Program-made: the position numbers and the translations under genes
Part shown: positions 2,093 to 18,446 of the stretch, piece after piece
Layout: every line of letters starts with the position of its first letter
How positions within the stretch are numbered: the stretch's first letter is position 1
DNA from: a virus
IMG/VR virus record: IMGVR_UViG_3300025141_000998
Location: 1 to 20,339 of that record
Length of the DNA: 20,339 nucleotides
Strand: one strand, 5' to 3'
Notes under the pieces: generated by a model
Told to the model about the DNA's origin: nothing
The model's database searches: none
The model's input: only the letters and a program-made list of their open reading frames with translations

Positions 2093-3279
2093 GATACTTT
2101 CCCCAACGAACCAAAATTGCTTCCTACGCCCACATTTGCTTTAAAGGCGCCCAATTCAGTTTCGGAAAATGTTTCAATCATCTTTTTTAATATCTCCTTA
2201 TCTTCATTGGCGAAATCAACAATGAGAGAATCATGAATAGTAAATGCTATTCTCGATTTGCGCCCACTTAAAAGCTTATATAAAGCTATTGCCCTTCTCA
2301 AAAAAAGATCTGACGTGGTGCTTTGTATAATATAATTTAATGCGTGAAAGTCGTCCGCTTCTATTTTTCTACCAAATGGTGTCGTTACTATTTTACCATC
2401 CCAATATTTTTCTTTAACGGCGAATCGGTCATAAGCTCGATTTGCTAGGCAATCTTTAGATTCCGAATTATATAGCCAAGCAAATATACGCTCCTTGGCT
2501 TCTTTGCGCGTAACAAGGCCCCTAAACACATTTTTTGCGTTCCACTCGTGGATGTCTCCCTCTGGTTGTTCTTTGCCGCACAAAGCCAACAGAGTTCGGA
2601 GTTCTGCTGCGTTGAAGTCGAGTTCTACAAACAAATCGTTCTGAGGTTCGATTCCTTTTCGAAATTCTTTTTTAAGTGTCAATATCGGAAATGAGCCACT
2701 ATTTGTCGTCAAGCGCCCCGTGCGCGTTCCATACATGTTATAAGAGATGCGACCCTTTGAACTATTAATTTTTTTGATTAAATTTTTATTTGATTTACGG
2801 GACAGCAACACTGCATCAATATTGCCCATGTTAAACTTTAATGGTTGATCTTTTATGTCAGAAACAAGCATTGTTAAATCGCGTAAAAAATTATAGTTGT
2901 GTGGTTTTTTGTGCTTCTTTAAAACATGTTGTGTAATTCGATTTTTGACTTCAAAAAACTCCAACAAAAAGTGTTCGGGGACCATGTCATAAAAACAATG
3001 CTCTTCCAAAGAAATCTGGGCATGTACAAAACACTTTAAATATGCCTTCATTCTTTTTGAAATCTGTTCCCACCTTTCCTCTAGCACAGAAGGGCACACT
3101 TCCCCCAGAGAAGCCCCGTGGCAATATAGCTGGGCGTATTCAAGATCCGCGTCGGGGAAATTTGTTGAAAAATTCCACGTCCCATCAAATTCCGACATAT
3201 CGATATCGGATATAATTTCCCCATTATAATATATTTTATTACAAAAACTTTTTTGATCCGCTGGCTGGAAACACTTCAT
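2089..3279 (-). CDS. polA: Family A DNA polymerase, polymerase domain only
   Basis: At 396 aa this protein carries the palm and fingers of a Pol I-type polymerase. Motif A is DFNAAELR, with catalytic Asp221, Glu226 and Arg228. The O-helix keeps the exact Pol I spacing R258-x3-K262-x3-F266-x3-Y270, although the usual following Gly is Asn271. Motif C is IHDS with Asp350; the usual Glu after it is Ser351. A TGRL signature (187-190) corresponds to the Pol I TGRLSS segment. No Asp/Glu exonuclease motifs are visible in the first 170 residues, so proofreading must be absent or come from another gene. The split polymerase of Rhodothermus phage RM378 is a known precedent. T4 itself uses a family B enzyme. 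The ATG lacks a Shine-Dalgarno site and lies at the predicted transcription start. The stop overlaps the next gene. Confidence 0.9.
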   Translation of the reverse strand: MKCFQPADQKSFCNKIYYNGEIISDIDMSEFDGTWNFSTNFPDADLEYAQLYCHGASLGEVCPSVLEERWEQISKRMKAYLKCFVHAQISLEEHCFYDMVPEHFLLEFFEVKNRITQHVLKKHKKPHNYNFLRDLTMLVSDIKDQPLKFNMGNIDAVLLSRKSNKNLIKKINSSKGRISYNMYGTRTGRLTTNSGSFPILTLKKEFRKGIEPQNDLFVELDFNAAELRTLLALCGKEQPEGDIHEWNAKNVFRGLVTRKEAKERIFAWLYNSESKDCLANRAYDRFAVKEKYWDGKIVTTPFGRKIEADDFHALNYIIQSTTSDLFLRRAIALYKLLSGRKSRIAFTIHDSLIVDFANEDKEILKKMIETFSETELGAFKANVGVGSNFGSLGKVS

Positions 3280-3285
3280 GTGTTT

Positions 3286-3314
3286 ATATTAGCACTGACG
3301 TGCCTTAAAGTCAA
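3286..3314 (-). promoter_or_regulatory. Sigma70-type promoter predicted to give a leaderless polymerase mRNA
   Basis: On the minus strand TTGACT (3314-3309) is followed after exactly 17 bases by TAATAT (3291-3286), preceded by TGC as an extended -10. The -35 box overlaps the TGA stop of the 1322-aa gene. Seven bases after the -10 box is the A of the polymerase ATG, so the transcript would begin at or within a base or two of the start codon. Confidence 0.6.
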
Positions 3315-6300
3315 CCAGTTTTTACATTATTATCACGGCCGGCGACAAAAACCATTCCCCACGGTGGCATCGAAGGGTTATTCAAAACAACAGGCCCTTG
3401 TTTGGAATCGAGAACATCCACTACGTTCTTAAGGCCGGACTTCTTCTTAAATATTTGATACTTGACTCCCGCTAAAATTTGAGCATGATAAACTGCTTTT
3501 TCAATAGAATCACTGCACGTATTCCAATAAACTTTTTGATTTTCAGAACAATAAGCTCCACACTTTCCCTTATTAGTATATGCACTACTAGCCATGCCGC
3601 TGCTAAATTGATCGCAAGAATCAACATCAAACCACGCTGCGCAATCTTTATAAGTTTCTAGAGGCTTTTTTATTAATTTAGAATTGAGGGAGGCACATTT
3701 AGCTTTACACGACTTTTTAATATATTCGTTGTCTTCTGAAAATGCATCGACACACTTAATATAACAAGAAGCATCCGTAATATATTTTTCCGTAGAAGCA
3801 AAGATGGGATCGGTGGCCCACTCAGCGGAAATTTTCTGTTGTTGGGCTATCGACAAGTTTGCTATAGCGGCATGACCTGTGGCCCTGTGGCCAATTCTAT
3901 ACCAGCCCTTGCGCGCTTGCCACAACGATTCGATGGTGACCGCCGTTCTTTCATATTTATCCGACCAGAGATTGTCCCATGTGCCGGGGATGGTCTTACA
4001 TTGCCACCCGTACCAGTCGTAAGTATACTGAGCCTTGGATACATTAGGGTTATAATCTGCCTTCATCCAATAAAAATCATAAGGGTCAATCCAGAATTCA
4101 TAGCTCCAACCGCTGTTTGGGGGGCTATAATCAGGTAAATATTTTTGAGGGTGCACGCAGCGTGTCCAAACACCAAAACCCTCACACTCATCCGGGCCTT
4201 TGCATGGGGTCTTCTTTTCTGGTGGGCAATGGGCTTTATCATAGCTCTTAATACCAGTCCACCGCCACGTAACGACGTTTTGTGCATATGGAACTGCAGA
4301 AGACGCTTTAGTCCTCCACAGTTCTACCCGATATTCATCAACGGGAATATAGGGAGCTTTCTGTGGCAGTTGAGTTATTGGTGTATCTGTTACACAACTG
4401 GCTCCCCCCAAGTATATGCCACTTTCATTTTTGTTCCATGGAATCATTTCTTTATGGGAAACACTGTGTTTAGTGCAATCTGGGTCTTTATATTGAAAGG
4501 CCGGATCGAATGACCAATTCTTGCATGGAAGTGCACACCATGCATCCATGTCTGCGCTGGGGCACTTACAAATTTCCGTAGAACAACCACCCAATGTAAT
4601 GCACGACCCAAACAATGCTTTCTTCTCTGGCGTGCAGTCTAAATTACTTTTGCAACTCTCTTTGTGATGAGGCCCCCCCGCGCACTTATTATTCTTACAC
4701 GGGAAAAGGACTTCTTTCTTTTTAAATTTCTTATCCAAACACTTAAGAACACACTCAGTCATTTTAGAGGCCGCTTTCTTTTGTTCTTCCTCCGAGGCGA
4801 CCGCGATGTCGCCGCCGGTGGTGGGCCCGGGCGCCGGATAAAGCTTTTTTTGACACTCCACCCTACACGCGCCTTCTTCTTTTGCCCACCACCATGGAAC
4901 ATAATGAGTAGTTTCTCCTGTTGTTGGATCTTTGTCGCCCGTTCCTCCGGGGCCGGTTTTATCACGGATCCCGTTAAATTTTGTTTTCCACCACCCATCA
5001 TAATCCCAGTCCCCGCCGGGTGGCTTCCATGGAGATCCAAACGGCGGGGGTTTATCCGGAGGGCCCGGGATGCGCTTCTTGGGGACGCCGGGGAACGGCG
5101 CATCACAAGCTTCTGGCTCCAATGTTGGTACAAGAAATCCCTCTGGCGATAAACAAATACGGTCCAGAAGAAGTTTTGGTTTTTCAAAATTGTCCCATGT
5201 TTCCTTTAAAAGAAAAAAAATGTTCTTTTTAACATTTTTTAGCCATGTATCAATCGGCAAGTTTTGATTGCTGGGGGTTCCAAAGATTAGTTCTACAAGC
5301 TGTATTAATCTGTTTTTAATACTTCGAAACTTTTTTTCGTCCTTTGAACTGTTTTCGGCTGCCGTGTACAGCGCGCTAATTTCGTTAAACAACAATTGCA
5401 TCTGCGGAAGGGATATCTGAGTATTATTTTCGCTATTTCTTAACCGCACGTAGTCCTTAACATATTTAATATCGTATAAAGCGCTTCCTTTGAGGGCGAC
5501 CACCTTTTCATCATTTAAAGAACGTGAAGGTCGAACATCTTTCTTAAATTTACTAAAAGCCTTGTTCTTAGAAGTCAAGACTTTCCCTGAAAATGGATAA
5601 GTTTCTATATACTCGCTATAAAACTCAATGGCCTTCGAGGGAAAATAAGAGAAAAACTGATAATCATAAACGTTGTAATAAATGTTTTCATAAAAATGTT
5701 GAGTTGGGGTTGGAACGCCGAACACAAAACTTAGCTGCTTCATAGATCTCTTTAATAGTTCTTTTAAGGTTTTAAATTCTTGTTCTTTCTTGTTAAAAAA
5801 GGGCTGATAGCTTTTTGTTATATTGAATATTAATTCTGTTTTTCCCTTTAAGCCTTGTTTTTTCTTAATAGAGGTAATTGTTCCCGGGTCGTATTTAAAA
5901 TATATTCTTATGGTATCAAGAAGCCCTATATACATCTCTATTTCATTTTCTAGCGCCTCAGTGGCTTCTTCGATCTTCTCACCACGAGCCTCAAGTAATT
6001 TATCAGTATCGGCCTTTAAAGCCTTGGTGTTCTTCAAGTCTTTTAATTTATTTTTAATTGCTTCGGTGTTGTCATCCATTGTTTTTCGGACAATGCGTAT
6101 TAGCTCAAACCATCCGGGCTTGTCGTCACCAGCACTTACATCCAGCTTTTTCATTTCGGCCAGATAATCAACAATAGTATCTTTAATGGCATCCATAAAA
6201 CGATCTGAGGCCACATCAGCTATAAGGCGCCATGGCTTGTTTGGATCAATTGCAAAGCCGCTTTCTCTGGCGGCATATGCATAAGCGGGGTAATTTAAAT

Positions 6301-7279
6301 CCTCTAAAAATTCTAATTTATCAGCATCTGTATTTTCAAGGTTGGTCTCTTTAACATCAAAAGCAAGATAGGAATCATATATATCAGCGCCTAAGCTCTC
6401 AGCGAACCCAGTAAAAGTAAGAGTAATATCATTATTAATTACAAAATCTACAAAAGTTTTATAAAATCCATCGTAATCGCTAATACGCTTGCTATAGCGT
6501 AAATCAAAGCCCGCTTTATTCATAAAACTAGCAAACACCCCCTCTAGGTGTGCAATATATTTTTGTTCTAAGCGAATAGTACTGCTTGGGCCGAACACAG
6601 CTTTCAACTCTGCGAGATGTTTGCTGTCTTTGCTGAGTTTACAACACAGTCCCGTATTGCCGATGGTGTTAAAAGTCTTTTTCATGTTTTCAAAAGCTTT
6701 CGCAACAAAATCAAAAACACAAATGGGAGTATCTCCCTCTTCGGCAATGTTTCGATATATAAAATAATTGGTATAAATAAGGTTATTTTTATTGCACACT
6801 CGGCCGTAAAAAGGCTGCTTGTACCAAGTATCAACCTGATTTACATAGGAAAACGGTTTCTTTTTAATAACCACTTCCCAAAATTTCCCCCCTTGTGCTT
6901 TGGACGTTTTTGCCAATATGGAAATCGCTTCATATCCCTGATATTCTTTGTTTGTGCTTAAGTGTTTAAGTACATCGTCTTTGGCCTTAAAAAGGTCGGG
7001 GTTCAAAATAAGAGTTTTTTCTTTCGGAGATACCTCAAGGCCTCTCGGATAATTTAATTCATTAACTAGTTCTTTATAGTTTTGATGTCCTTCGAACTTT
7101 TCTGCAGTCGTTGCTTCGTTGGAAGCGTTAGATATGTCAGGGTTTTCTTGTTGAAGGAAGTATTTTTTAATTAAGTGAATCCCAATTTGGTCAAACAAAT
7201 CTGCCGGCTCACTAAAATAATATTTTTTAGCTGCGTCAACCTCTTCTGTTAATTCTTCTTTTGTTTTAAACTTTTTCAT
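3311..7279 (-). CDS. Giant two-part structural protein with a cysteine-rich C-terminal half
   Basis: This 1322-aa protein has no recognised family. Residues 1-705 are Lys-rich and mostly helical in character, with a likely coiled coil at 402-450 and only four cysteines. A Pro/Gly/Trp-rich linker (728-800) leads to a C-terminal half with 32 cysteines. These include six CX3C pairs (805/809, 843/847, 915/919, 1172/1176, 1191/1195, 1240/1244) and two copies of C-x7/9-C-K-x4-C-x8/10-C (866-893 and 1018-1041). Such density suggests disulfides or metal binding in an exposed virion part. No signal peptide or membrane segment is evident. The ATG overlaps the stop of the 971-aa gene (ATGA) and has no clear ribosome binding site, so translational coupling is likely. 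As the last gene of the tail/baseplate block it is probably a baseplate, fibre or host-contact protein. That role is inferred from position only. Confidence 0.6.
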   Translation of the reverse strand: MKKFKTKEELTEEVDAAKKYYFSEPADLFDQIGIHLIKKYFLQQENPDISNASNEATTAEKFEGHQNYKELVNELNYPRGLEVSPKEKTLILNPDLFKAKDDVLKHLSTNKEYQGYEAISILAKTSKAQGGKFWEVVIKKKPFSYVNQVDTWYKQPFYGRVCNKNNLIYTNYFIYRNIAEEGDTPICVFDFVAKAFENMKKTFNTIGNTGLCCKLSKDSKHLAELKAVFGPSSTIRLEQKYIAHLEGVFASFMNKAGFDLRYSKRISDYDGFYKTFVDFVINNDITLTFTGFAESLGADIYDSYLAFDVKETNLENTDADKLEFLEDLNYPAYAYAARESGFAIDPNKPWRLIADVASDRFMDAIKDTIVDYLAEMKKLDVSAGDDKPGWFELIRIVRKTMDDNTEAIKNKLKDLKNTKALKADTDKLLEARGEKIEEATEALENEIEMYIGLLDTIRIYFKYDPGTITSIKKKQGLKGKTELIFNITKSYQPFFNKKEQEFKTLKELLKRSMKQLSFVFGVPTPTQHFYENIYYNVYDYQFFSYFPSKAIEFYSEYIETYPFSGKVLTSKNKAFSKFKKDVRPSRSLNDEKVVALKGSALYDIKYVKDYVRLRNSENNTQISLPQMQLLFNEISALYTAAENSSKDEKKFRSIKNRLIQLVELIFGTPSNQNLPIDTWLKNVKKNIFFLLKETWDNFEKPKLLLDRICLSPEGFLVPTLEPEACDAPFPGVPKKRIPGPPDKPPPFGSPWKPPGGDWDYDGWWKTKFNGIRDKTGPGGTGDKDPTTGETTHYVPWWWAKEEGACRVECQKKLYPAPGPTTGGDIAVASEEEQKKAASKMTECVLKCLDKKFKKKEVLFPCKNNKCAGGPHHKESCKSNLDCTPEKKALFGSCITLGGCSTEICKCPSADMDAWCALPCKNWSFDPAFQYKDPDCTKHSVSHKEMIPWNKNESGIYLGGASCVTDTPITQLPQKAPYIPVDEYRVELWRTKASSAVPYAQNVVTWRWTGIKSYDKAHCPPEKKTPCKGPDECEGFGVWTRCVHPQKYLPDYSPPNSGWSYEFWIDPYDFYWMKADYNPNVSKAQYTYDWYGWQCKTIPGTWDNLWSDKYERTAVTIESLWQARKGWYRIGHRATGHAAIANLSIAQQQKISAEWATDPIFASTEKYITDASCYIKCVDAFSEDNEYIKKSCKAKCASLNSKLIKKPLETYKDCAAWFDVDSCDQFSSGMASSAYTNKGKCGAYCSENQKVYWNTCSDSIEKAVYHAQILAGVKYQIFKKKSGLKNVVDVLDSKQGPVVLNNPSMPPWGMVFVAGRDNNVKTG

Positions 7280-12980: not shown

Positions 12981-13145
12981 CTAATTAGACGCTTCATTCA
13001 TTTTTTTAGCCATTTCACACGCTTTATCAATATACCATGTGCGAAGAGCGACAGGTAGCATATACATTTCTGTAAAAGACCAATTATAATCTTTTATCAT
13101 AAAAAGGAAATTTTCGTAAACAGCTTGAATATACTCAGAGGTCAG
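12981..13145 (-). CDS. Small GpE-like tail-assembly chaperone frame, +1 relative to the hub-chaperone gene
   Basis: The frame is open from the stop at 13166-13164 to TAG at 12983-12981, with no ATG until 13100, where no ribosome binding site exists. Useful coding covers about 54 residues, starting LTSEYIQAVYENF and continuing into the ATG-started part. The core NWSFTEMYMLPVALRTWYI followed by DKA parallels the W-x3-E-M-x8-L-x2-W-x3-A pattern of the small P2-type chaperone GpE, which loads tube subunits on the tape measure. Without a normal start it may be made by +1 (or -2) frameshifting from the upstream gene at the T7 run 13155-13149, giving a fusion of about 315 aa. Other possibilities are initiation at CTG 13145 or ATG 13100. 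A one-base sequencing error in the T run would also join the frames. The coordinates given begin at the CTG. Confidence 0.6.
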   Translation of the reverse strand: MTSEYIQAVYENFLFMIKDYNWSFTEMYMLPVALRTWYIDKACEMAKKMNEASN

Positions 13146-13929
13146 GCCAAAAAAAGTTCGCCATTAAAGGCACGCCTCCTTTGTTGAGATGTTCACAATG
13201 TACACATTGGTGTTCATAAATGAAATCAACATCTGGGCTGTATTCAATATATATTTTGGCCAGATACCTAGAATCTTTAATCGGCATGTTGCTTACAAAG
13301 CTGGCAATATAGAGAGGGTCTGTGTTACCATTAACAGACTTAATTATTCTGCGATACTTTTCGATGGTCGGCTCTACCACCAATCCGTGCTTTTCTTTTT
13401 GTGCTATTTTCTTGTTTATTTCCACTTCATCGTTTGCTGTTAATAAACCCATCTCAACAGAAACATTGCTCACCGGCAAGTCTATCGTAAAGGTTCCATT
13501 GTCGGTGAACCTCGCATCAATGTTATCACGGAAATTTAATTCATCTAGATTGATCGTGAGGTCGTTTTCCTTGAAGCACTTCTCACACATATATGCAAAA
13601 GCATAAGAAGCCCCATAAGCATTTTTGCGTGCATTGATAATAATGGCGTTTTTATCACCAATTAAAAGACTGTTGACATCAATTTTTGTATTGACCAATA
13701 CGCTTTCAATTAGTTTATCTAATACAATGCCCTTTTCAATATATTTTTGATTGATCAGTATGTCTTCTTCTCTTGTAGACATATAACGTACTTCCACACA
13801 CTCTTCATCGTGAAGGGGGTGGGCAGGAGGGTAGAACTTACCCCTTGATGGCAGATCAACCAGATCTGTTGGAATTGTATATGCCCCAGCAGGCGCCTGA
13901 CGGCGACCCATGTTCTTATCAGCGTTCAT
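13135..13929 (-). CDS. 26: gp26/gp51-type baseplate hub assembly chaperone
   Basis: This 264-aa protein matches the T4 baseplate hub chaperone family (gp26/gp51). Characteristic segments are LPSRGKFYPP (26-35), VRYMSTREEDILINQKYIEKG (47-67), LIESVLVNTKIDVNSLLIGDKN (73-94) and the closing FFWPDL. Two CxxC pairs, Cys115/Cys118 and Cys242/Cys245, could form one zinc ribbon. The ATG has GGAG five bases upstream, overlapping the TAG of the tube gene. Near its 3' end is a full AAAGGAGG site ten bases before an in-frame ATG (13164), then a run of seven T. Both look more like signals for the overlapping small frame than accidents. Position between tube and tape measure genes fits a factor that prepares tail assembly rather than a major virion component. 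Confidence 0.78.
   Translation of the reverse strand: MNADKNMGRRQAPAGAYTIPTDLVDLPSRGKFYPPAHPLHDEECVEVRYMSTREEDILINQKYIEKGIVLDKLIESVLVNTKIDVNSLLIGDKNAIIINARKNAYGASYAFAYMCEKCFKENDLTINLDELNFRDNIDARFTDNGTFTIDLPVSNVSVEMGLLTANDEVEINKKIAQKEKHGLVVEPTIEKYRRIIKSVNGNTDPLYIASFVSNMPIKDSRYLAKIYIEYSPDVDFIYEHQCVHCEHLNKGGVPLMANFFWPDL
13149..13155 (-). promoter_or_regulatory. Candidate frameshift site: run of seven T near the end of the hub-chaperone gene
   Basis: In the chaperone frame the codons are AAC TTT TTT TGG. A Phe tRNA on the second TTT can re-pair perfectly after moving +1 (or -2), which opens the small GpE-like frame GGC CTG ACC. A -1 shift would reach TGA after two further codons, so it is not the useful direction. 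Confidence 0.4.
13175..13182 (-). promoter_or_regulatory. Internal strong Shine-Dalgarno site AAAGGAGG
   Basis: A full-strength ribosome binding sequence lies inside the hub-chaperone gene, ten bases before an in-frame ATG at 13164 and about 19 bases before the T7 run. It could start a short product that shifts into the GpE-like frame, or it could pause elongating ribosomes near the shift site. It also encodes Lys-Gly-Gly, so chance is possible. Confidence 0.45.
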
Positions 13930-13937
13930 GAATACTC

Positions 13938-14639
13938 CTAAATAATATCACCCAAGACGCCGTGCGATATCTTGCTTCTCTTGTCTTCTAGGTTTGCCGG
14001 GGAGTCGGTAACCATGGCAGCATAATTGTTGGGCTTTTTATCCAAATGTCGATGCAGGCGAGCAAAATCATAAGTTAGTGTAACCGATATACCCGTTAGT
14101 TCATCTGATGAATAGTTCATATCACTTGGTTTCATATCTGTAACCATGGCATTAATAAGCTCCCATTCTTCATAAACAACGCCCTCATCGTCTATCATCT
14201 TTATTCTAACTGGTCCAAGCCCATTAATTAAGTTTCTTTTATCAAGATCTTTAGGCTGAAACATGCCAACTTGGTCGGGGTTTGCCCACGACAAGTGGCC
14301 CAGCTTATCCATAAAAACGCCGACAGAAGTATTAAACAAGTCGCGATCAAAAACTTCCTTTAAAGTAAAATTGATGCTGTTCCACTTTAATTCCATTGGA
14401 TAATTAAAAGTCCAGTTTAACAGCTTAAAAGCTCGTGTATTGATGTTGTAAGATGGGCGCGACACGTTGCTAATATAAGCTGCGTCGAACCCTTCTATCA
14501 TTAGAATAAAACGATAAGACTGCTGTAAGGCACTTCTCGTGCCATCCACAACCGCGCTGCGCGGGAGGTTTGGAATTGACGGACTGTCCTGATATTTAGT
14601 GCGCGGATCGAGAGCGCCTTTTAAGAATGTTTCTGACAT
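13938..14639 (-). CDS. 19: Tail tube protein, gp19 family (second of two paralogues)
   Basis: This 233-aa protein belongs to the T4 gp19 tube family, whose hexamers stack to form the inner tail tube. Visible signs are the opening strand YRFILMIEGF (42-51), a central stretch around ELKWNSINFTLKEV, and a C-terminal signature (MNYSSDELTGISVTLTYDFA) that also occurs in the upstream 185-aa protein. About 40 N-terminal residues come before the fold and a basic tail follows it, so it is longer than its paralogue. The 27-base gap upstream is AT-rich and has no Shine-Dalgarno sequence. It does contain TATTAT three bases before the ATG, so initiation is unusual or coupled. One paralogue is probably the main tube. 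The other could be a terminal ring or tail-end variant. Confidence 0.78.
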   Translation of the reverse strand: MSETFLKGALDPRTKYQDSPSIPNLPRSAVVDGTRSALQQSYRFILMIEGFDAAYISNVSRPSYNINTRAFKLLNWTFNYPMELKWNSINFTLKEVFDRDLFNTSVGVFMDKLGHLSWANPDQVGMFQPKDLDKRNLINGLGPVRIKMIDDEGVVYEEWELINAMVTDMKPSDMNYSSDELTGISVTLTYDFARLHRHLDKKPNNYAAMVTDSPANLEDKRSKISHGVLGDII

Positions 14640-14666
14640 GCTATAATAAATAGCGCAAAACTAAAT

Positions 14667-15224
14667 TTAAGTTATTGTAACTAGCTCTTTATTGATAACC
14701 AAGTCTGCCCAATCGTACACAAGCGTTACATTGATTCCCAACAAGTCCTCAGATGAGTAGTCTAGATCGTCATATTCGACCTTGCTTACCCAAGTATTAT
14801 TTAAGGTCCACGTTTCAACAGTGTCGCCATCACCATTAAGAATTTGCACACGAACTGTGCCCAAGTTATTACTAACAAAATTTCTTTTAGAGGGTGATAT
14901 CTTATAATTGGTGTTCTCAAGATTCCATGTAGAGGGGGCTTTGTAGCCAGCTTTCTCAATAATCCCAAGCATTCCACTGGCAGCGTCAAAATCAATAGGA
15001 TCAACTAAGGCAACTGAAATATTATCCCACGTTACACGACCGGGGAATTTAAATTCATGAGCCATAAAATTGTGTTTTGCGCCCTCGCTTACAGTAACCT
15101 TCGGGCGCCCGGCAGTTTTGATAATCCATGCAGGCAAATCCCCCAATAAAAGAATATATTTATATTTTCTTTTAGGCTCTAAACCTGCTGTCTGCCATGG
15201 TGGTAACGGTGATGCTTGTACCAT
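14667..15224 (-). CDS. 19: Tail tube protein, gp19 family (first of two paralogues)
   Basis: This 185-aa protein is a gp19-type tail tube protein. It has the opening strand KYKYILLLGDLP (21-32), the central VTWDNISVALVDPIDFD and the closing signature LDYSSEDLLGINVTLVYDWA. Its C-terminal half aligns without gaps of note to the next gene: NLGTVRVQILNGDGDTVETW here against GLGPVRIKMIDDEGVVYEEW there. It sits directly after the sheath, where T4 has gene 19. The start has a strong AAGGAGAT eight bases upstream that begins within the sheath stop codon, so it should be translated efficiently. This is the better candidate for the abundant tube subunit. Confidence 0.8.
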   Translation of the reverse strand: MVQASPLPPWQTAGLEPKRKYKYILLLGDLPAWIIKTAGRPKVTVSEGAKHNFMAHEFKFPGRVTWDNISVALVDPIDFDAASGMLGIIEKAGYKAPSTWNLENTNYKISPSKRNFVSNNLGTVRVQILNGDGDTVETWTLNNTWVSKVEYDDLDYSSEDLLGINVTLVYDWADLVINKELVTIT

Positions 15225-15236
15225 TTAGTTATCTCC

Positions 15237-18200
15237 TTAGTCTTCAAACGCTGCGCCAGTATTTGTAATAACAAAATCAACAGCAATAAATTCAATAGCT
15301 CTTGCCGGCTTCAAGAATATCTTTGCATACATAATATTTTGATCAATCAAATCGGGTGTCGTGGTTGTCTTATCAAGTATCAACTTGTAGTCAGTAACGC
15401 CAAAGCGTGCCTTCACATCTGATAAGAAAGGCTCTGCTCTAGAAATAAACCTATCCCAAGTCTCTTGAACGTTTGGCTCAAAAAGTATGTCTTTGGCAAT
15501 CCGCGAAATGCCCTTCTTAACAAAGATAAGAAGCCTTCGCACGTTAATTCTATCAAGAGCACTTCTAGTAACTTGAAGGGTTTTCTGACCGAATATTACA
15601 ATACCCTCATTCGGGAATGAGGCGATTGGGTTGATATTGGCATCATAAAGCTTATCCCGGTCTTTGCTTGACAGTTTTTCAGTAACGTTAAATACTGGAA
15701 GCCCCGCCAACCCTGTAGACAAGCCACCTCTGTTAAAGCCTGCTGGTGCGAACCATGGTGCTTTAACTCTATCAGTATAAGACATAGCTCCAAACGCAAC
15801 AACTGAAGGGGGCATGTAAACCAATTCTGCTGTCAACGTGTCTCTGACCTGAACGTAAGGGTAATAAGCACACCCATAACTATTATTGATACCTCGGGAT
15901 TTAAGGTTGGAAATAGTAGTATCGATGTCGGGCAACACCACACTGCCTACAGGTGAGCTAGCTCCCTCTGCAGCAGGTTGGAAATCTCCTTCAAGATCAA
16001 TAATAGCCAAAGCATCTGACCTTTGTTCGGTTAGTTGCAGCAAATGAGAGGTCAGCACTGTGTTAGTTAAATTGGGAATAGTAACAAGATTGTATTCTAC
16101 AAATTCGGGGTCTCTTATACTATCAATAGCTTGCTTATAAGTGTTAAAAACGTAACTGCTTTCAGGCGTAGCCGCAGAGACGATACCACTATTGCGAAGA
16201 GGATCAAGCTCAGTGATATCCCAACCGTCAGTGCCCCCATAAAAGAGAGTGGTAAATGAATTTATTGCTACACTAGGATCTAATGTCGCTGCAGTGCCAC
16301 TGGTAGCGGTAAAAGAAGTACCAGCAATACGACAGCCCGGCGAATAACTAAAAGTATCAGTGCCGGCAGCGTAAATAATATCATCTAAACTAAATTGATA
16401 CATGTGCTCAACAAATGTATTAGTTTGGGACGGATCCATTGAAGTGAATGTAGAAGCCAAGGGCGCAGACATATCAATAACATCATCATTGAAAGTACTA
16501 TCAGTCATGCTCTTGCCAGTCCAGACGCCCCACGAAGCCTGCGTATAAACTGGCATGTCATCTTGGCGTGTGTCTGCGCGCATGCGAACTTTTGGAAACT
16601 GAAAACGATAAGAAGAGGATGGATTCACAGATGCGATTATCATACTGCCACTTACAGAATAGGAGTTGCCCGGGATTAGTTCATTGGTAGATGATTGGCC
16701 GGCAAATGTAAGAACCCCATTCTTTGCCATGGCCGTGGTTGCCGAGGCGGCGGGTGAATGGCCCCCATTGGCCATTATTGCGTTACTGCCTGTATATCCG
16801 CAGGGCCCGCCGGGGAGCGAACTGGTCATACACCGTTTAATATCTGGGTAGTTTAAACCGATTTGGCCTATTTTGCTATCAAAATTTCTATATTTAAGCG
16901 GCCCGAAAACTCCATACGGCAAAAGTACTTTATTTGCTTGAGGAGACTCCACCGAAGGGTCTAACTTAACTCGGATGTACTTAGATTTGTTGTGGAACGC
17001 GCCTTGGCGAAGAAGACTGCGCTTAGTGGCATCAAAAGTATAGAATTCGGTTCCAATTTTATTTCCTATAAAATGTGGCGATGAAGGATCCAAATTACAA
17101 TTGCTAAATCTTTCAATAACAATACGCGCTTTGTCCGTATCACCAACACTTCTTAAGACCACATCAAAGGTGCCGTATTCTACAAACTGATTTTCTGGCT
17201 TTTTAATATTTTCAATAGTTATTTTAGTATTTTTTTGTAGCCACTCTCCCTGTGCCAACCCTACAAACTTGAAAAGCTTTTGCATGTTGTAAGGATTGTA
17301 GTTGGCAGTGTCGTTGGTCGTATCTTGAGAAAAATACCATCCAGTCTCGGCGTCAGTAAATTGACGGTTATGTATTCCATGATCGTTGGCCGTGCTGCCC
17401 TGCGCCGCTTCGGTCAAATCTAATATAACTCCAAAGAAAGTATTGCCGTTAAAATCGCTGCCAGTTGGCACAGTCAAATCATAGTCCCCACTGTCAAGGT
17501 AGGATTCAAGGGCATCTCGTAAAGGGAAAGGGCTAGCCGTAGTAATATTAGTAAGCTCGCGTGCAAACGATTCTCCAAGCCAATAATTTTCTGTCGAATC
17601 GGACGGGGTGACGGAGTCATTAGCCAGTGTGGGGTTGGTGTTAAAAACCTTTCTAATATAATTGGCCGCCAGTGGATCAAAGCTAAATTTAACTTCTCGG
17701 TTTTTCAGCGGATTTGAACCAGTAATAACTACAGTAAAATCACCACCGTTGTCTTCGCTGGCAATAAACTCGGCTATAGCAAAATCGCGGCTGGCTGCGC
17801 TATAACCATCAAGGATCGGTTGAGTAACATACGTACTCTTGCCCTTTAGGCCAACTTGGCCTGCATTTACATACCAGATAGCCGCCAAAGAGCCCGTGGT
17901 GCCCATGACGGTGCCGACGATGGCGCTCGAAGAGGAGAGGTGAGTAGGAAATACAAAAAGGCCGTATGCGCCGCCGATTTCGTCTACGTCAGAGCCGCCG
18001 GCGAAGGTGTCGGTGTTTGTGCCACCGCCAACTCCATCAATGAGTTGGGTGCCGTCAGTATTGAGTTGAAAAGGCACCTGCGTGCGCCAGCCAGCCGAAG
18101 CGCTCGGGTCGGCGCCGGCTAACGGATGTTCCACACCACCAAGCCTCATAATTGTGATGGTAGAAGAATTCTTTAACCACGCTTGTGCAGCGTATGAAGC

Positions 18201-18446
18201 ATAGGTGGGGCTTAAAATGTTACCATTGCGCCAAACATCCGACCCCTTGTAGCCAGCATCGGGGGCGCCATATATTTGTACAAATTCTTCAAATGAATCT
18301 ACCATAACGGGGCGATTTGCGGGCCCGCGTACAGTTCTACCTATAACCAGCGGGCCAATATCTCTTGGTGCGTCTGGTAATTCTGAGTTATCTATCTCGT
18401 TAAGAAATATTCCCGGTGAAATAAATTTAAATGACTTTGCGCTCAT
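15237..18446 (-). CDS. 18: Tail sheath protein (gp18-like), unusually large
   Basis: This protein forms the contractile sheath around the tube. The N-terminus carries FKFISPGIFLNEID and GPLVIGRTVRGPANRPV, then VDSFEEFVQIYGAP, all typical of phage sheaths. The C-terminus carries INVRRLLIFVKKGISRIAKD from residue 967, then ILFEPNVQETWDRF and a closing strand with KPARAIEFI, the conserved domain that interlocks sheath subunits. At 1069 aa it is about 400 residues longer than T4 gp18. The extra length lies in the middle, which is rich in Ser, Thr, Gly and Asn (for example 150-480 and 560-760), and would form surface-exposed domains. GGAG lies ten bases before the ATG. A hairpin terminator ends the upstream gene, so the sheath may have its own late promoter, but none was recognised in the 68-base gap. 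Confidence 0.93.
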   Translation of the reverse strand: MSAKSFKFISPGIFLNEIDNSELPDAPRDIGPLVIGRTVRGPANRPVMVDSFEEFVQIYGAPDAGYKGSDVWRNGNILSPTYASYAAQAWLKNSSTITIMRLGGVEHPLAGADPSASAGWRTQVPFQLNTDGTQLIDGVGGGTNTDTFAGGSDVDEIGGAYGLFVFPTHLSSSSAIVGTVMGTTGSLAAIWYVNAGQVGLKGKSTYVTQPILDGYSAASRDFAIAEFIASEDNGGDFTVVITGSNPLKNREVKFSFDPLAANYIRKVFNTNPTLANDSVTPSDSTENYWLGESFARELTNITTASPFPLRDALESYLDSGDYDLTVPTGSDFNGNTFFGVILDLTEAAQGSTANDHGIHNRQFTDAETGWYFSQDTTNDTANYNPYNMQKLFKFVGLAQGEWLQKNTKITIENIKKPENQFVEYGTFDVVLRSVGDTDKARIVIERFSNCNLDPSSPHFIGNKIGTEFYTFDATKRSLLRQGAFHNKSKYIRVKLDPSVESPQANKVLLPYGVFGPLKYRNFDSKIGQIGLNYPDIKRCMTSSLPGGPCGYTGSNAIMANGGHSPAASATTAMAKNGVLTFAGQSSTNELIPGNSYSVSGSMIIASVNPSSSYRFQFPKVRMRADTRQDDMPVYTQASWGVWTGKSMTDSTFNDDVIDMSAPLASTFTSMDPSQTNTFVEHMYQFSLDDIIYAAGTDTFSYSPGCRIAGTSFTATSGTAATLDPSVAINSFTTLFYGGTDGWDITELDPLRNSGIVSAATPESSYVFNTYKQAIDSIRDPEFVEYNLVTIPNLTNTVLTSHLLQLTEQRSDALAIIDLEGDFQPAAEGASSPVGSVVLPDIDTTISNLKSRGINNSYGCAYYPYVQVRDTLTAELVYMPPSVVAFGAMSYTDRVKAPWFAPAGFNRGGLSTGLAGLPVFNVTEKLSSKDRDKLYDANINPIASFPNEGIVIFGQKTLQVTRSALDRINVRRLLIFVKKGISRIAKDILFEPNVQETWDRFISRAEPFLSDVKARFGVTDYKLILDKTTTTPDLIDQNIMYAKIFLKPARAIEFIAVDFVITNTGAAFED

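What the first reader, a model, noticed from the sequence alone, without database searches (positions are those of the whole stretch)
12981..13182. Hidden GpE-like chaperone frame overlapping the hub-chaperone gene at a T7 run, just before the tape measure gene
Seen: a 54-60 residue frame in the +1 phase of the hub-chaperone gene has no usable ATG and no ribosome binding site of its own. It contains NWSFTEMYMLPVALRTWYI. A T7 run (13155-13149) lets the upstream frame slip into it, and a full AAAGGAGG lies shortly upstream. Known: many tailed phages make two chaperone products by frameshifting just before the tape measure gene (lambda G/GT, P2 E/E'). P2 GpE has a similar W...EM...L...W pattern. 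T4 is not a recognised example. Inferred: this T4-related phage may use a +1 (or -2) shift to fuse a gp26/gp51-type chaperone to a GpE-like tail, uniting two chaperone systems usually described separately.
Basis: partly seen in the sequence, partly recalled or inferred. Interest (0 to 1): 0.72.

Follow-up and report, generated by a model that had tools for sequence, protein, structure and literature searches.

The report
Frameshifted tail-assembly chaperone gene in phage
This phage gene almost certainly makes two versions of a tail-building helper protein, a short one and a long one, because some ribosomes slip forward one base at a run of seven T's; the trick is a known one in tailed phages, here in a forward-slipping form that is conserved across dozens of distant relatives.

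Summary
The PF12322 chaperone gene (13929-13135, minus strand) ends in FFWPDL*. A second frame, in the +1 phase, opens inside it at a T7 run (13155-13149), has no usable start codon before its first helix, and ends at 12981 just before the presumed tape-measure gene. It is not a sequencing error. Of 83 analysable loci (the window and 82 relatives; chaperones mostly 30-52% identical), 78 carry the same small domain in the +1 frame, 4 in the -1 frame, and 1 as a separate fused gene. The slip site is TTT TTT TGG in 65 of 78, with Phe-codon choice far from chance. The small frame is under purifying selection (dN/dS about 0.14).

Best explanation: a +1 programmed ribosomal frameshift makes a 315-residue long chaperone (TAC-NC) beside the 264-residue short one (TAC-N). 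The GpE assignment fails; the domain resembles DUF6760 and gp51-type C-termini. Tail-chaperone frameshifting in T4-like phages was already published (Vladimirov 2022). New here, as far as I could check: the +1 form with a conserved upstream Shine-Dalgarno-like element, switching of shift direction, and a parallel GGGGGA (-1) junction in bacterial contractile injection systems.

The parts
13135..13929 (-). TAC-N: short tail-assembly (hub) chaperone, 264 aa, zinc-ribbon type, ending ...VPLMANFFWPDL*
   Evidence: PF12322 T4_baseplate E=1.1e-9 over the cut-off; phrog_150 baseplate hub E=1.2e-12
13149..13155 (-). Slip site TTT TTT T|GG: P-site Phe tRNA re-pairs UUU->UUU one base on, A-site codon UGG
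   Evidence: Sequence; TTT TTT TGG in 65 of 78 loci, Phe TTT 149/152 vs 108 expected
13175..13182 (-). Shine-Dalgarno-like AAAGGAGG 19 bases upstream of the slip site; candidate stimulator
   Evidence: 83% of +1 loci have SD-like pairing <= -6 kcal/mol 12-28 nt upstream vs 4.8% of other windows of the gene; 25 of 30 clusters <50% identical vs 12.4 +/- 2.3 by synonymous resampling
12981..13148 (-). TAC-C: C-terminal domain read after the +1 shift (first codon GGC 13148-13146, stop TAG 12983-12981); the frame is open from 13163
   Evidence: Profile found in 83 loci; dN/dS ~0.14; confident three-helix model, pLDDT 93; DUF6760 in 32 of 68 members
13162..13164 (-). In-frame internal ATG of TAC-N; candidate internal start, not conserved
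   Evidence: Sequence; the ATG at this place is shared only with L002
11382..12977 (-). 531-aa ORF starting a few bases after the TAC-C stop; presumed tape measure by position
   Evidence: ORF; no Pfam or PHROG match; tape measure annotated at this place in Flavobacterium immuto and Bacillus SP-15
13938..14639 (-). Tail tube protein, gp19 type, copy 2
   Evidence: phrog_4542 E=6.5e-17
14667..15224 (-). Tail tube protein, gp19 type, copy 1
   Evidence: PF06841 E=3e-8, phrog_4542 E=2e-19
15237..18446 (-). 1069-aa ORF, presumed tail sheath
   Evidence: ORF and position only; sheath annotated at this place in relatives

Best explanation
The gene makes two chaperones. Most ribosomes end at the stop behind FFWPDL and give TAC-N (264 aa). 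Some slip +1 at TTT TTT T|GG: the Phe-tRNA in the P site moves from UUU to the overlapping UUU while the Trp codon UGG waits in the A site. They go on in the +1 frame and give TAC-NC (315 aa: ...VPLMANFFGLTSEY...EASN). By analogy with lambda gpG/gpGT, many TAC-N and few TAC-NC coat the tape-measure protein, and the C-terminal helical domain recruits tail-tube subunits before both leave the finished tail. Shown by sequence: the frame, the site, its conservation, protein-coding selection on the small frame, and gene order. Inferred: that the ribosome shifts, its efficiency, the stimulating role of the upstream Shine-Dalgarno-like element, and the assembly function.
For: 78 of 83 loci have the domain in the +1 frame, always opening before the TAC-N stop; 27 of the 78 have no ATG, GTG or TTG at or before the start of the domain, and 54 have no usable start before FF. 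TTT TTT TGG in 65 of 78, still in 24 of 30 clusters below 50% identity. Variants TTT CTT TGG, TTC TTT TGG, TTT TTT TAC and, in SP-15, TTT TTT C allow +1 re-pairing. TAC-C coding signal: dN/dS ~0.14; 186:120:410 changes at codon positions 1, 2, 3. In-frame fusions at the same FF junction exist: Bacteroidota L102 and L103 (...DMQSFFM.RLT...); a second, fused chaperone copy exists in phage contig L062. The fused 315-aa protein fits phrog_150 better and further (52.2 bits, to 267/282) than TAC-N alone (48.9 bits, to 232). The same position before the tape measure is seen in annotated phages.
Against: No protein or ribosome data. The tape-measure role of the next ORF rests on position. Sixteen +1 loci lack the classic Shine-Dalgarno words within 36 bases, and its distance (12-28 bases) is longer than the spacings I know from RF2 (about 3) or dnaX (about 10), so its role is unclear. 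No strong RNA structure follows the site (mean z -0.6). The relatives share ancestry, so counts are not independent. L004 (AAC TTT CTA TTC) fits less neatly.
Confidence: 0.88

Rival explanations
1. TAC-C is a separate small protein: the SD-like AAAGGAGG starts translation inside TAC-N (for example at ATG 13164, followed by a shift, or at a non-standard codon) and no fusion is needed.
For: AAAGGAGG lies ten bases before an ATG; SD-like sequences are strongly enriched at this place; a few relatives (L015, L023, L024) have an ATG in the +1 frame with SD spacing.
Against: ATG 13164 is in the TAC-N frame and reads MANFFWPDL*, so a shift is still needed. 54 of 78 loci have no usable +1-frame start before FF. 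Fused forms occur in L062, L102 and L103.
Confidence: 0.06
2. The T7 run works by transcriptional slippage (loss of one U in some mRNAs), not by ribosome slippage.
For: Seven T's is a plausible slippage tract.
Against: Relatives keep the +1 arrangement with no run longer than four T's (TTC TTT TGG) or three (TTT CTT TGG).
Confidence: 0.04
3. Sequencing error or broken gene: the true sequence has six T's and one long gene, or the small frame is a relic.
For: Homopolymers are error-prone; the two frames would join with one T fewer.
Against: T7 and phase recur in an independent contig and in dozens of relatives, including complete genomes of cultured phages; the frame is under purifying selection. 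FFWP is a conserved end of TAC-N, so the T7 is required by that frame too.
Confidence: 0.01
4. A -2 shift rather than +1.
For: In T7, -2 also reaches the small frame; Mu-type chaperones use -2 (established knowledge).
Against: At TTT CTT TGG and TTC TTT TGG only +1 gives good re-pairing (CUU->UUU as in RF2, UUU->UUU).
Confidence: 0.05

Closest known systems
Tail-assembly chaperones of T4-like phages (Vladimirov, Gautam & Davidson 2022, Virology 566:9-15; not held, cited in PMC12846349 and PMC10274946)
   Same: PF12322 gp26/gp51-type TAC-N, a small C-terminal domain, place before the tape measure; frameshift in several groups and two separate genes in T4 (the group detail is from my memory of the abstract)
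   Different: PMC12846349 describes the poly-T sites as -1 signals; here the shift is +1 in almost all relatives
Lambda G/GT and P2 E/E' (Xu, Hendrix & Duda 2004)
   Same: Short and frameshifted long chaperone just before the tape measure
   Different: -1 shift; unrelated proteins; no GpE (PF06528) similarity here
Vandenendeviridae/Andersonviridae chaperone locus (PMC12846349)
   Same: Conserved poly-T site at the end of TAC-N with a C-terminal extension routinely annotated as a separate hypothetical gene
   Different: -1 shift at GTTTTT
RF2 (prfB) +1 frameshift
   Same: YUU-U P-site slip to UUU; upstream Shine-Dalgarno-like element
   Different: Stop codon UGA in the A site and SD about 3 nt away; here UGG and 12-28 nt
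+1 structural-gene shifts in Listeria phage PSA and archaeal virus HSTV-2 (cited in PMC9024508 and PMC5009743)
   Same: +1 direction in tail or structural genes
   Different: Other gene families and sites
eCIS 'phage tail assembly protein' plus DUF6760
   Same: Same two-domain logic and order; TAC-C resembles DUF6760 (32 of 68 members)
   Different: eCIS frame is -1 with a conserved GGGGGA, or fused in one frame; no phage head

Membership tests
T4-like tail-assembly chaperone (PF12322, TAC-N) | PF12322 profile match over the cut-off | tested here: met
   38.8 bits, cut-off 24.5, E=1.1e-9
T4-like tail-assembly chaperone (PF12322, TAC-N) | Gene lies between tail tube and tape measure | tested here: inconclusive
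   Tube genes upstream confirmed; next ORF has no profile match, tape measure by position and by analogy
T4-like tail-assembly chaperone (PF12322, TAC-N) | Direct sequence similarity to T4 gp26 and gp51 | tested here: inconclusive
   TAC-NC profile against T4 proteins: gp51 E=0.0023 and gp26 E=0.0028 with only four sequences searched; hhalign weak; TAC-C not found in the T4 genome
Programmed frameshift | Overlapping out-of-frame extension without its own start, conserved in relatives | tested here: met
   78 +1 and 4 -1 of 83 loci; 54 of 78 without a usable start before FF
Programmed frameshift | Slip site conserved beyond protein coding | tested here: met
   TTT 149/152 vs 108 expected
Programmed frameshift | Frameshift product demonstrated | not testable with these tools
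   Needs proteomics or a reporter
P2 GpE (PF06528) | Phage_P2_GpE profile match of the small frame | tested here: not met
   Not among the families listed for 68 TAC-C members at E<=10 (25 of 26 shown); none in the window at E<=10
DUF6760 (PF20546) | Profile match over the curated cut-off | tested here: not met
   Window frame 16.6-19.1 bits vs cut-off 27; 32 of 68 members match at E<=10, best 1.7e-5: distant likeness, not membership
gp51-type 'baseplate hub assembly catalyst' (phrog_634) | TAC-C aligns to the C-terminal half of the family | tested here: inconclusive
   15 of 68 members, best E 0.0013, aligned to 60-120 of 121; the window member itself gives no match

The most novel reading that the evidence does not exclude
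Contractile machines with a PF12322-type chaperone, phages and bacterial extracellular injection systems alike, all make a short and a long chaperone from one junction: phages of this group by an RF2-like +1 shift with a conserved upstream Shine-Dalgarno-like stimulator, others by -1 shifts, eCIS by a -1 shift at a conserved GGGGGA into DUF6760, and some by gene fusion or duplication. The junction is old, the decoding trick is interchangeable.
Probability: 0.5. Interest if true: 0.68.

Novelty: new variant of a known kind. Interest (0 to 1): 0.5.

Why it matters
Large families of environmental T4-related phages are annotated with a 'baseplate hub' gene and a truncated or missing small gene. 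Reading them as one frameshifted chaperone pair corrects many records (for example LIS04 has no TAC-C gene annotated; immuto and SP-15 annotate it from an internal ATG). The +1 site gives a large natural alignment for studying +1 frameshifting in bacteria, including a conserved Shine-Dalgarno-like element at an unusual distance and switching between +1 and -1. The eCIS parallel suggests that tail-length control by a two-form chaperone extends to bacterial injection devices.

Tried and rejected
GpE identity: rejected. Homopolymer error: rejected. Transcriptional slippage: disfavoured because sites without a long T run keep the arrangement. Downstream RNA structure as stimulator: mean z -0.6, 24% below -2; not convincing. 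SD-like element as an ordinary start signal for TAC-C: 54 of 78 loci have no usable start before FF. SD in the -1 phage group and in SP-15, LIS04 and GXN1: no strong element (best -5.7 kcal/mol). Direct hhalign of TAC-N with T4 gp26 or gp51: uninformative. PDB fold search of the TAC-C model: no significant match. Structure of the fused protein: the four-letter reading was not accepted by the tool. A ten-sequence alignment was too diverse for a collection scan. DUF6760 in 14 control genomes: none. Literature for eCIS frameshifts: nothing found in the held library.

Full report
OBSERVATION. On the minus strand the chaperone gene runs from 13929 to 13135 and ends ...KGGVPLMANFFWPDL*. The T7 run at 13155-13149 is the TTT TTT TGG of FFW. 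In the +1 phase a frame opens after a TAA at 13166-13164 and runs to a TAG at 12983-12981, without ATG, GTG or TTG before the ATG of FLFM. Reading TTTT once as Phe gives one 315-residue protein. AAAGGAGG lies at 13182-13175, with an in-frame ATG ten bases after it.

WHAT THE PARTS ARE. The chaperone is a PF12322 (T4_baseplate) protein, E=1.1e-9, and phrog_150 baseplate hub. Two gp19-type tube genes lie upstream; the 531-aa ORF downstream has no profile match and is called tape measure by position only, as annotated at that place in Flavobacterium phage immuto and Bacillus phage SP-15. The small frame has DUF6760 as its best Pfam match (E 0.008, below cut-off) and no GpE match. AlphaFold2 gives a confident three-helix domain, pLDDT 93, without a significant match in the PDB.

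CONSERVATION. One close contig (L002) has the same T7 and an identical small frame although its chaperone is only 89% identical. Among cultured or named phages, Microcystis Mel-JY01, Flavobacterium immuto, an uncultured 484-kb phage, Bacillus SP-15, Listeria LIS04 and Streptococcus GXN1 carry a second frame in the +1 phase across the end of this gene; three jumbo or uncultured phages carry it in the -1 phase. A scan of IMG/VR gave 80 more loci (33-52% identical). A profile seeded from four small frames found the domain in 83 loci: 78 in +1, four in -1, one in frame 0. The small-frame phase is fixed by this profile and not by eye.

THE SITE. The codons at the FFW motif are TTT-TTT-TGG 65, TTT-TTT-TAC 5, TTT-CTT-TGG 3, TTC-TTT-TGG 3, TTT-TTT-CGG 1, TTT-CTA-TTC 1. 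Phe codons there are TTT in 149 of 152 against 108 expected from each gene's own usage; none of 200,000 simulations reached this. All but the last allow a peptidyl tRNA on UUU or CUU to re-pair with an overlapping UUU (UUC where the next base is C), the move known from RF2; in L004 the slip would be UUU to UUC one codon earlier. With clusters below 50% identity, 24 of 30 still have TTTTTTTGG. The four -1 loci share A AAT TTC TTY TGG, a classic -1 heptamer (X XXY YYZ). So direction has switched in this group while the domain stayed.

CODING. Outside the overlap, 14 usable pairs give a median dN/dS of 0.14, and changes at codon positions 1, 2, 3 are 186:120:410.

AN UPSTREAM ELEMENT. In the +1 loci, SD-like pairing of -6 kcal/mol or better occurs 12-28 bases upstream of the slip site in 83%, against 4.8% of comparable windows elsewhere in the same genes. 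Synonymous resampling gives 13.7 +/- 2.8 loci with SD words against 50 observed; Glu codons there are 39 GAG to 4 GAA, against 504 to 1083 elsewhere. In clusters below 50% identity, 25 of 30 against 12.4 +/- 2.3, maximum 19. It occurs in several codon registers. The four -1 loci and the SP-15-type phages lack a strong one. I infer a stimulating or pausing role, but the distance is longer than the textbook cases known to me, so this stays open.

GENE FUSION AND DUPLICATION. Contig L062 has a TAC-N gene ending FFWPNVSDN* followed by a second gene that is a TAC-N-like domain fused in frame to TAC-C: the two-gene layout described for T4. The fused window protein extends its match to phrog_150 from profile position 232 to 267, so the family already contains such long forms.

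BACTERIAL INJECTION SYSTEMS. DUF6760 genes lie directly behind a zinc-ribbon 'phage tail assembly protein'. In two Bacteroidota genomes the two are one frame, joined at ...DMQSFFM. In one Bacteroidota genome and in plasmid-borne loci of Actinomycetota, Cyanobacteriota, Pseudomonadota, Bacillota and Spirochaetota the domain is in the -1 frame relative to the chaperone, and the chaperone ends with GGGGGA in 15 of 17 loci against 1.4 expected by synonymous resampling. Several have no ATG, GTG or TTG at the conserved start of DUF6760; some Streptomyces and Rhizobium loci do have GTG or ATG there, so overlapping starts are a live alternative. The held literature showed no report of this.

PRIOR ART. 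The review PMC5009743 (2016) says G-T frameshifting is widely conserved 'except T4'. PMC12846349 (2025) reports a -1 site in Vandenendeviridae and cites Vladimirov et al. 2022 for poly-T sites in TAC-N genes of T4-like phages; PMC10274946 cites the same paper for separate short and long genes in some T4-like phages. I could not read that paper. Its abstract, as I remember it, says frameshifting is conserved in several T4-like groups and that T4 uses genes 26 and 51. So the core idea is known; the finding is a +1 variant.

LIMITS. No expression data; relatives are not independent; the tape measure is by position; I cannot exclude that the 2022 paper already lists +1 sites.

Noticed in passing
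L101 and L110-L126 (eCIS loci; DUF6760 match at 801 of the plasmid loci): Bacterial eCIS chaperone genes end in a conserved GGGGGA (15 of 17, 1.4 expected) with DUF6760 in the -1 frame and often without a start codon; PGAP starts one at ATA (Nostoc) and truncates another to TTG (Rhodococcus). Candidate -1 programmed frameshift in eCIS.
   Followed up: partly
L102 and L103, 859-1623: eCIS chaperone and DUF6760 domain are fused in one frame at ...DMQSFFM.RLT, the same place as the phage slip site.
   Followed up: partly
L062, about 2414-4209: Phage contig with a separate TAC-N gene followed by a second, in-frame fused TAC-NC gene, like the T4 gene 26/51 solution.
   Followed up: partly
L054, L058, L061, L067: Relatives that reach the same domain by a -1 shift at A AAT TTC, without a strong SD-like element.
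   Followed up: partly
L007 3203-3432; L005 3333-3443; L006 3294-3413: Public records of Listeria LIS04 (small gene missing) and of Flavobacterium immuto and Bacillus SP-15 (small gene started at an internal ATG) are mis-annotated at this junction.
   Followed up: yes
window 13938-15224: Two different gp19-type tail tube genes in tandem upstream of the chaperone gene.
   Followed up: no
window 3311-7279: A 1322-aa ORF with a cysteine-, proline- and tryptophan-rich middle region in the baseplate area; not identified.
   Followed up: no
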